Shown piece by piece: positions 17,344-39,336 of a stretch of 64,000 nucleotides of DNA (its first letter is position 1; each line of letters begins with the position of its first letter). The notes beneath the pieces are model-generated. The model did not search any database and had not been told where the DNA came from. It saw only the letters and a program-made list of their open reading frames with translations. This DNA is from Methyloceanibacter sp. wino2 (lineage in GTDB: Bacteria; Pseudomonadota; Alphaproteobacteria; Rhizobiales; Methyloligellaceae). The stretch is from the NCBI RefSeq assembly GCF_003071365.1, contig NZ_CP028960.1, positions 2,524,501 to 2,588,500 on the forward strand, read 5' to 3'. A program made the translations under genes and the position numbers.

Positions 17344-19133
17344 CTAAAGGCTCAAGCTGGCAACGACAGACCACGGGGGCAGCGGGCCGTCACCGGGGTT
17401 TACGCCAGGAGGCGTCGTGAAAAACGGTTTGCCACCGGCGTTCGAAGGGAGCGTGACGGGGGCATCCGACAGATTGGCGGTTAAGGCCAGCGTGCCGCTG
17501 CCTTCCAGGTCCCAACTGACCGTGAAGGCGGGGCCCTGACGTGCGGCGACCGTGCCTGCATGCCCGCCGATGGATGTCATGTGCGGAATGACGTGTGCCT
17601 TGCGGGCGGACAGCAGCCGCTTGACCAGGTCCAGGCGCGGCGTGTCCGCCGGCGCAAGAACGCTGCGCTCGAAAGTCTCCAGCGCATTCGGGTTCGGGAT
17701 TTCTTTCCCGGCCGCGGCATTGGCGTAGGATTCGTGGCTGCCGAAATCGGCACGCCGGCCCTTGACGACGGCCTTGGCCAGATCGCCCTGGAAATCGGTG
17801 AAGAACAGAAACGGTTTCGTCTCGCCGTATTCGTCGCCCATGAACAGCATCGGAATGTGGGGCGCGAGCAGCAGCAGCGTCAGGGCCGCATCCACGGCCT
17901 CGGCCGGTGCCAGCGATACGAGCCGGTCGCCATGCGCGCGATTGCCGGTTTGGTCATGGTTCTGAACGTAGTTGATGAAAACCGTCGGCGGCAGATGCGC
18001 TGATGGCTCCCGCGCATCTTGCCGCGGAACGCCGAATCCTCGCCCTGGTAGTCGTAGCCTTCCGCCATCGTCCGCGCGAGACGCCCGACGGGATCGTCGA
18101 TGTGGTCTTTGTAATAGCCGGTCTTCTCGCCGGTCAGGATCACATGGACCGCGTGATGCCAGTCGTCGTTCCACTCGGCGTCGTAGAGACGCGGCGCGCC
18201 CGTTTCGTCGAATTGGAACAGCCGTATCGAATTCTCGTCGTCCTCGATGGTGAGGTGGACATGCCGATCCGGAATCCGGGTGCGGATCTCCCGCGCGATC
18301 TCGGCGAGAACCTCTTCCTCGGCGGTGTCCTTGATGTGGTCGACCGCGTCGAAGCGCAGCCCGTCGCAGCGGAACTCCTCGAGCCAATAGAGCGCGTTGT
18401 GCACGAAGAACTCCCTGACCGGCAAACGATCGAAGGCAATGGCCGCGCCCCAGGGTGTGTTCCGTCTGGGATCGAAAAAGTTGGGCGCGTAGTGACTGAG
18501 ATAATTCCCGTCCGGCCCGAAATGATTGTAGACCACGTCCATCAGCACCATCAGGCCGCGTTCGTGACAGGCATCGACAAGCCGCTTCAGGCCTTCCGGG
18601 CCGCCATAGGCAGTATGGGGCGTATAGAGCAGAACGCCGTCATAGCCCCAGCCGCGATTGCCGCCGAACTGCGCCACCGGCAGTAGCTCGATCGCAGTCA
18701 CGCCCGTGTTCACGAGCCTGTCGAGATCGCGGGCGATGCCGTCGAACGTGCCGTCCGGCGAGAACGTTCCCGTGTGAAGCTCGTAGATGACGGCTTCCTG
18801 CCAGGGGCGGCCTTTCCAGTCCGGTGTCTGCCAATCGTAGGCCTTCGGGTCCACGAGGCGGCTGAAGCCATGGACATCGGACATCTGGGCGCGGGCAGCC
18901 GGGTCCGGGACACGCATCCCGTCTTGGAGGGCGAACTGATAGCCGCCGCCAATCGGGACGGCATCCGTCAGAGCCTCGAACCAGCCTTCTCCGGATTGCG
19001 TCATCGGGACGGTGGCGCCGGTTTCGGTGATCAACGATACGGATTTTTGCGCGGGCGCCCAAAGCCGGAAGCGGGCGCCGTCTTCGATGATCTCCGTGCC
19101 CCAGGGGAGCGTATGGGCGAAGCGCGCGCTCAT
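17344..19133 (-). pseudogene. treZ: Malto-oligosyltrehalose trehalohydrolase, frame broken by one missing base
   Basis: The reading frame from the ATG at 19133 gives a normal TreZ N-terminus and catalytic barrel (GLRFDAVDHI with the nucleophile, TIEDDEN with the acid/base) up to AFRGKMRG, then turns into a nonsense tail ending at 17880. The next frame continues at EPSAHLPPTVF, QNHDQTGNRA and runs to a proper C-terminus at 17344. Restoring one G in the coding strand at the run read as CCC on plus (18009-18011) joins both parts into a 596-residue protein, the usual length. TreZ hydrolyses maltooligosyl-trehalose to trehalose. The start overlaps the glgX stop (ATGA). Either a sequence error or a real frameshift; everything else looks intact. 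Confidence 0.9.
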
Positions 19134-38341: not shown

Positions 38342-39336
38342 CTACTTCAGCGGCTCGATGAGCCTTGCCATCATGTCGCTCATCTCGATCCCTTCGGCGC
38401 GGGCGGCGAAGGTCAGCGACATGCGGTGCTTCAAGACAGGTTCGGCGAGGTCGATCACGTCGTCCACGGACGGGGCCAGGCGGCCTTCCATCATGGCCTT
38501 GGCGCGGACGGCCAGCATCAGCGCTTGGCTCGCGCGCGGGCCCGGGCCCCAGGCGATCATCTCGTCCAAGGTCTGGTCGATGCCCGTGCCGGGACGGGCG
38601 GAGCGGACGAGCTTCAGAATCGCGTCCACGACTTGATCGCCCACGGGCAACTGGCGCACCAGGCGCTGCGCGACCATCAGTTCCTCGCGGACAGGATCGT
38701 CTTGAGCTTGCGCTCCTCGGTGCCGGTGGTGGCGAAGAGCATGCGCCGCTCGGACTCGGCATCAGGGTAGGACACGTCGATCTGCAGCAGGAAGCGGTCG
38801 AGCTGCGCCTCGGGCAGCGGATAGGTGCCTTCCTGCTCCAGCGGGTTCTGGGTCGCGAGCACGTGGAAGGGCAACGGTACGTCATGACGGACGCCGGCCA
38901 TGGTCACGTGATGCTCCTGCATGGCCTGCAGCAGAGCCGACTGCGTCTTGGGGCTCGCGCGGTTGATTTCGTCGGCCATCAGAAGCTGGGTGAAGATCGG
39001 TCCTTTGACGAAGCGGAACTCGCGCTTGCCGCTCGCATCTTCTTCAAGGACTTCGGAACCCACGATGTCGGAGGGCATCAGGTCCGGCGTGAACTGAATG
39101 CGCTTGTTCTCGAGACCGAGCACGGCGCCCAGCGTTTCGACGAGGCTCGTCTTCGCAAGACCCGGCACACCGATAAGGAGGGCGTGCCCGCCCGAGAGCA
39201 ACGTCACCAGCGCCAAGTCAATGACCCGCTCCTGACCGAAGATGACGGACGAGGTCGCCTCGCGTACATCCTGGATTTTGCTTCCGATTTCGTCGAGGCG
39301 GTCGACGAGCTGGGGCTCCGATTCAAGTGTGGTCAT
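38342..39336 (-). pseudogene. MoxR-family AAA+ ATPase, frame broken by one missing base
   Basis: The N-terminal 219 residues read as a standard MoxR ATPase: Walker A region GVPGLAKTSLVETL, Walker B LLMADEINRASPKTQSALL, sensor 1 VLATQNPLEQEGTYPLPEAQLDRF. After TILSA the frame stops at once (38677). The rest (MVAQRLVRQLPVGD through SLTFAARAEG, the lid domain) is in the next frame and ends at 38342. Inserting one G at 38687 (coding strand GCGAGG to GCGGAGG) restores ILSAEELMVAQR and a 331-residue protein, the normal size. First gene of the four-gene operon. With the frame broken the C-terminal lid would be lost or made separately from an internal ATG at 38677. Confidence 0.9.

What the first reader, a model, noticed from the sequence alone, without database searches (positions are those of the whole stretch)
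18009..38687. Five genes broken by the same kind of single-base deletion
treZ (18009-18011), otsB (27023-27025), the gene at 28802 (29234-29239), a metallophosphoesterase (29611-29612) and moxR (38687) each have two well-conserved halves in adjacent frames. In all five the frame is restored by adding exactly one base: in four it must be one G on the coding strand, immediately before an A; in the fifth it is one G or C in a GGCCGG stretch. No gene needs a base removed. Independent pseudogenes would show mixed insertions and deletions and stop codons. The one-sided pattern points to systematic loss in G/C runs in the sequencing data, clustered between 18 and 39 kb. If so, many neighbouring gene calls in this genome may be wrong as well.
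Basis: partly seen in the sequence, partly recalled or inferred. Interest (0 to 1): 0.7.

Follow-up and report, generated by a model that had tools for sequence, protein, structure and literature searches.

The report
Base losses from assembly errors
Several apparently broken genes in this environmental bacterium's genome most likely reflect single bases lost during sequencing and assembly rather than real gene decay, so gene calls in this genome should be read with care.

Summary
The observation largely holds. At all five places the window is one base shorter than related genomes, and G005 has each gene whole.

The pattern is not confined to 18-39 kb. In 0.24 Mb aligned to two relatives, frame-breaking length changes private to this genome are 16 shorter to 1 longer in coding sequence. 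They are denser in 18-39 kb (6 of 10 in 14% of comparable coding sequence; chance about 0.014).

Decay is unlikely: broken genes are as constrained as intact ones. The only rpoA (RNA polymerase alpha) is split the same way, whole in 16 of 16 congeners. The only mutL is split too, so a real mismatch-repair mutator was weighed. It is disfavoured by rpoA and the scarcity of insertions, but a slight excess of private transitions (P 0.04) leaves it open.

Verdict: most likely a long-read-type consensus artefact, mostly but not only in G/C runs. No reads could be seen, so platform and read support are unproved.

The parts
17344..19133 (-). treZ (malto-oligosyltrehalose trehalohydrolase), split in two frames: first part in ORF 17880-19133, second in ORF 17344-18387; one base short at about 18006-18010
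   Evidence: TIGR02402 positions 2-361 in one ORF and 356-544 in the other; 2-544 in one G005 ORF; one base shorter than all four relatives
26432..27212 (+). otsB (trehalose-phosphatase), one base short at about 27021-27025
   Evidence: Pfam Trehalose_PPase on the first part; TIGR00685 over the G005 copy; extent; private loss against four relatives
28802..29364 (+). gene without a Pfam or NCBIfam match, one base short near 29254
29351..30303 (-). calcineurin-like metallophosphoesterase, one base short at about 29607-29612
   Evidence: Pfam Metallophos; private loss against four relatives
30291..30899 (+).
   Evidence: family from the G005 copy
38342..39375 (-). moxR-type AAA ATPase, one base short at about 38686-38687
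   Evidence: Pfam AAA_3 on the first part; AAA_lid_2 found on the G005 copy, not on the window ORF; private loss against four relatives
27284..27291 (.). intergenic G run, one base shorter than in all four relatives: same kind of loss outside a called gene

Best explanation
The breaks are consensus errors in the assembled sequence: short runs, mostly of G/C, were called one base too short, as is usual in long-read assemblies not fully polished, and the genes are whole in the cell. Shown: the losses are in this record, one-sided in coding sequence, private, spread over the chromosome, and in constrained genes including the only rpoA. Inferred: that the reads carry the missing bases, and that the platform was a long-read one.
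For: Private frame-breaking changes in coding sequence: 16 shorter (15 by one base, 1 by two), 1 longer (17 bp) in 243,639 bp aligned to both G004 and G005; control G005 5:3 coding and 22:18 noncoding. G/C runs of two or more: 13 of 18,904 shorter, 2 longer; A/T: 3 of 7,970 shorter, 1 longer; loss rate in G/C rises with run length. The only rpoA is split near model position 190 of 298, whole in 16 of 16 other genomes of the genus. Median dN/dS of 16 broken genes 0.097 against 0.077 in 265 intact genes, P 0.58; no stop downstream of the break in the old frame in any of the 16. Papers, passages only: leftover nanopore errors are mainly homopolymer indels that shift frames (PMC8011154); deletion errors are tied to runs of two to eight bases (PMC12007338).
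Against: No reads seen. By G005's letter only 17 of 28 private one-base losses (11 of 15 coding) are G/C, in a 64% G+C genome. In the run table the control G005 is alike (G/C 12 shorter, 2 longer; A/T 5 and 3), on about three times as many private differences, which include the stem. Wild-type Vibrio indels are deletion-biased two- to threefold (PMC5854121, passages); at 3:1 the sign has P 0.05. G000 has slightly more private transitions than G004 (3,444 vs 3,278, P 0.04), as a recent mutator would. Kastor's test genome lost A/T more often than G/C. The rpoA split would leave the N-terminal domain readable. The excess in 18-39 kb is unexplained.
Confidence: 0.9

Rival explanations
1. A real, recent mutator lineage: mutL is broken in the cell, mismatch repair is lost, and runs have slipped and broken many genes.
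For: The only mutL is split into two frames (model 1-347 and 432-551) in this genome alone, in one frame in 16 of 16 congeners. Against G005 the single frame-breaking difference within mutL is one base missing in a C run; against G004 there are several, partly offsetting. Slippage also rises with run length (PMC5854121, passages). Private transitions are slightly in excess of G004 (3,444 vs 3,278, P 0.04); transversions are not (2,061 vs 2,014, P 0.47). Some 220 substitutions would go with 16 indels at the P. fluorescens ratio, about the total excess of 213.
Against: The only rpoA is broken too. Mismatch-repair-deficient lines have insertion bias (P. fluorescens, PMC4316635, passage) or slight deletion bias or none (Vibrio mutS lines), not 16:1. 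The transition share is ordinary (0.626 vs 0.619). mutS is whole.
Confidence: 0.05
2. Ordinary recent pseudogenes, perhaps decay of trehalose synthesis (treZ and otsB both hit).
For: Two trehalose genes are among the five; losses are denser in 18-39 kb.
Against: No stop downstream of the break in the old frame and no relaxed selection in 16 of 16 genes; unrelated and core genes are hit elsewhere; treS, otsA and glgX in the same cluster are open.
Confidence: 0.03
3. Programmed or tolerated frameshifting: the frames are really offset and the cell reads across.
For: Both halves stay conserved in the old frame.
Against: G005 has these genes in one frame, and rpoA and mutL are in one frame in 16 of 16 congeners, so no shift site is conserved. 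Read by eye, the contexts share no slippery sequence beyond short runs.
Confidence: 0.01

Closest known systems
Homopolymer indel errors of long-read (nanopore) assemblies, as in the Homopolish (PMC8011154) and Kastor (PMC12007338) papers (passages seen)
   Same: One-base deletions in short runs that split conserved genes and inflate pseudogene counts
   Different: Here G/C losses outnumber A/T losses, whereas Kastor's test genome had more A/T losses; platform unknown here
Mismatch-repair-deficient mutators (P. fluorescens ATCC948, PMC4316635; Vibrio mutS lines, PMC5854121; passages seen)
   Same: Run-length-dependent one-base indels; mutL is split in this record; slight excess of private transitions
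   Different: Almost no insertions in coding sequence; the only rpoA is hit; ordinary transition share

Membership tests
Long-read consensus error | Breaks private to one assembly, absent from close relatives | tested here: met
Long-read consensus error | One-sided sign (deletions) in coding sequence | tested here: met
   16 shorter, 1 longer; P 0.0003 against 1:1, but 0.05 against a natural 3:1 bias
Long-read consensus error | Concentrated in homopolymers, rate rising with length | tested here: inconclusive
   Rate rises with G/C run length, but the G005 control gives a similar table; 17 of 28 losses are G/C by G005's letter
Long-read consensus error | Hits essential single-copy genes | tested here: met
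   Only rpoA split; that it is essential is established knowledge, not tested
Long-read consensus error | Reads or another platform carry the longer form | not testable with these tools
   No reads available
Pseudogene | Relaxed selection or further lesions | tested here: not met
   16 genes; a very recent pseudogene would escape this test
Mismatch-repair mutator | Broken mutS or mutL | tested here: inconclusive
   mutS whole; mutL split in the record, by the kind of change under test
Mismatch-repair mutator | Insertions as well as deletions | tested here: not met
   1 longer against 16 shorter in coding, 4 against 14 outside
Mismatch-repair mutator | Raised transitions | tested here: inconclusive
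   3,444 vs 3,278 in G004, P 0.04; share 0.626 vs 0.619

The most novel reading that the evidence does not exclude
The losses are real: a recent mutL-deficient lineage carries many one-base losses, even in rpoA, and lives on through slippage in transcription or translation that restores enough full-length protein, or with an alpha subunit made as two pieces.
Probability: 0.03. Interest if true: 0.7.

Novelty: not a real feature. Interest (0 to 1): 0.15.

Why it matters
It reveals no new biology, but warns that this closed genome, rated 99.99% complete, may carry very roughly 100-210 falsely broken genes (extrapolated, with and without doubtful events and the dense stretch; one search gives 211 and 157 for all events). 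Claims of missing pathways or missing mismatch repair from such an assembly would be unsafe. Two other assemblies of the genus, G004 and G014, show a higher rate of the same.

Tried and rejected
A shared motif (such as a methylated site) behind the losses: contexts of 28 private one-base losses were read by eye; short runs recur and no longer motif stood out; no motif statistics were run. A paper search on modification-linked nanopore errors was seen as a listing only; so were apart from the four papers named, of which passages were seen.

Homopolymer table as proof: the first version (344 kb block, G004 and G005 as references) was G/C-only and loss-only (8 of 8); pooling six blocks added 3 A/T losses and 3 gains and showed a similar table for G005, so I do not lean on it.

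Substitution test of the mutator: I first took the substitution counts as ordinary; on recheck G000 has a slight excess of transitions over G004. For that, and because an rpoA split leaves the N-terminal domain, I lowered the artefact reading from 0.93 to 0.90 and raised the mutator from 0.03 to 0.05.

Doubtful events kept in the count of 16: 40429 probably lies in an over-long ORF start upstream of a PolyA_pol-head-domain gene; -1528, R2 24600 and R3 33310 lie within the first 20 codons of the relative's ORF and may be start-site errors. Left out of that count: treZ (further indels nearby in G004), 95221 and 97707 (seen against G003 and G005 only) and mutL (outside the blocks). Fetched but not used: G000 stretch L161-L162 and L202-L206.

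Full report
What the window is. The window is bases 2,524,501-2,588,500 of a single-contig genome of 3,209,973 bases (G000; completeness 99.99). In a GroEL tree it stands beside G005, within Alphaproteobacteria and without a close named relative among 80 loci. The 15-39 kb stretch holds a glycogen/trehalose cluster (4-alpha-glucanotransferase, treZ, glgX, treS, otsA, otsB) and a MoxR/DUF58 pair. G004, G005, G014 and G003, of the same genus, keep the same order there.

The observation. At each of the five sites the window is one base shorter than its relatives. TIGR02402 covers treZ at positions 2-361 in one ORF and 356-544 in the next, and 2-544 in one G005 ORF. For otsB, the metallophosphoesterase and moxR all four relatives agree in the gene-level count. 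treZ shows the loss against all four at DNA level but is not in the clean gene-level list, most likely because G004 and G014 have other indels close by. The gene at 28802 is supported by G004 and G005 at 29254 and by net counts against G003, G005 and G014. A sixth gene, a NUDIX hydrolase at 30487-30490, was missed.

How wide it is. In a 344 kb block with up to four relatives, 9 private frame-breaking events without contradiction were found, 9 of 9 losses (131,552 bp covered by two or more relatives); treZ makes ten. Six further events seen against two or more relatives were contradicted by another and set aside, and 40 rested on one relative only (25 losses, 15 gains). Same-call controls: G005 3 events (2 losses, 1 gain) in 130,418 bp; G003 3 (0, 3) in 124,701 bp; G004 15 (12, 3) in 67,233 bp; G014 9 (9, 0) in 42,614 bp. 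Five 40-kb blocks elsewhere on the chromosome were then compared with G004 and G005. Over all six blocks (243,639 bp) G000 has 16 losses and 1 gain in coding sequence, 14 and 4 outside; G005 5 and 3, 22 and 18; G004 56 and 8, 15 and 8. One block (R4) had none. Six of the ten events in the 344 kb block fall in 18-39 kb, 14% of the comparable coding bases; in random draws some window of that size holds six or more in 1.4% of 20,000 draws. The stretch was picked after the fact, so the clustering is suggestive only.

Where the bases are lost. By G005's letter, 17 of 28 private one-base losses are G/C, 16 of them in runs of two or more; 11 are A/T. Of the 15 coding one-base losses 11 are G/C. In the pooled run table G/C runs of two or more are shorter in 13 of 18,904 cases and longer in 2; A/T runs 3 and 1 of 7,970. 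The G/C loss rate is 0.0001, 0.002, 0.008, 0.016 and 0.18 (2 of 11) at lengths 2 to 6. G005 gives 12 and 2 for G/C (of 18,858) and 5 and 3 for A/T (of 7,964), with 17,436 private differences against 5,505; lacking an outgroup, the G005 figure includes the stem. So the table fits an artefact but also natural slippage. What separates them is the coding loss rate per substitution (10-fold above G005, P 7e-7), the sign, and the genes hit.

The genes hit. The only rpoA match in G000 is split near model position 190 of 298 into two frames; in 16 of 16 other genomes of the genus one frame covers the model. The split comes after residue 234 of 361 of the G005 copy, so the N-terminal domain stays readable and the C-terminal domain falls into another frame. 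From established knowledge, not tested here, loss of that domain should be lethal or severe. Others hit, named from the G005 copies, include a RarA-like ATPase, a NuoF-like protein (break within its first 20 codons), a NirA-like reductase, a molybdopterin oxidoreductase, an agmatine-deiminase-type enzyme (also near the start) and a TorF-type porin. In 16 broken genes (14 with codons on both sides) dN/dS against G005 does not differ from 265 intact genes (median 0.097 vs 0.077, P 0.58; intact genes filtered for score, length, cover and dS). None of the 16 has a stop downstream of the break in the old frame; two show one stop upstream that G004 shares, most likely before the true start. Some downstream parts are short, 27 codons at the least.

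The mutator rival. mutS is whole. mutL is split in G000 alone among 17 genomes, by one base missing in a C run against G005; against G004 there are several partly offsetting indels. Mismatch-repair-deficient P. fluorescens has an insertion bias, with indels 6.77% of mutations (PMC4316635, passages). Vibrio mutS lines keep a slight deletion bias in one species and none in the other (PMC5854121, passages). Sixteen to one fits neither well, although wild-type Vibrio are deletion-biased two- to threefold and at 3:1 the count has P 0.05. Private substitutions are 5,505 against 5,292 in G004 (P 0.04), with the excess in transitions (3,444 vs 3,278, P 0.04) and not clearly in transversions (P 0.47); the transition share is the same (0.626 vs 0.619). 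Sixteen indels would bring some 220 substitutions at the P. fluorescens ratio, so this slight excess is what a recent mutator could leave. It is also small enough for rate variation between lineages. The broken rpoA and the scarcity of gains remain the main arguments against; the simplest account is that mutL is one more victim of the same fault.

Known kind. Leftover errors of nanopore genomes are mainly homopolymer indels that shift frames (PMC8011154, passages), and deletion errors are tied to runs of two to eight bases (PMC12007338, passages). PMC9262707 was seen as a listing with the start of its abstract.

Limits. No reads, platform or sample record could be seen, so the last step, that the cell carries the longer form, is inferred. 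Genome-wide numbers are extrapolated from 7.6% of the chromosome.

Noticed in passing
G000:C1:1056968-1058559 (L199): The only mutL is split into two frames in this genome, in one frame in 16 of 16 congeners; taken at face value the annotation would make the organism mismatch-repair-deficient.
   Followed up: yes
L165:2676-3760 (G000:C1:3002676-3003760): The only rpoA is split into two frames by the same kind of loss.
   Followed up: yes
G004 (L101-L103, L122-L128, L170-L172, L176-L178, L182-L184, L188-L189, L193-L195) and G014 (L108-L110): Two relatives carry more private coding losses per base (G004 56 shorter, 8 longer; G014 9 and 0), so their gene calls are suspect as well.
   Followed up: partly
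window 43568-44505: Further places one base shorter than G005 (43573, 43931, 44505), the last in a gene whose G005 copy has a DM13 domain; G004 does not cover them, G003 supports the first.
   Followed up: no
G005:C1:1567394-1567597: A short second match to the C-terminal part of the rpoA family in G005 (open frame of 106 aa).
   Followed up: no
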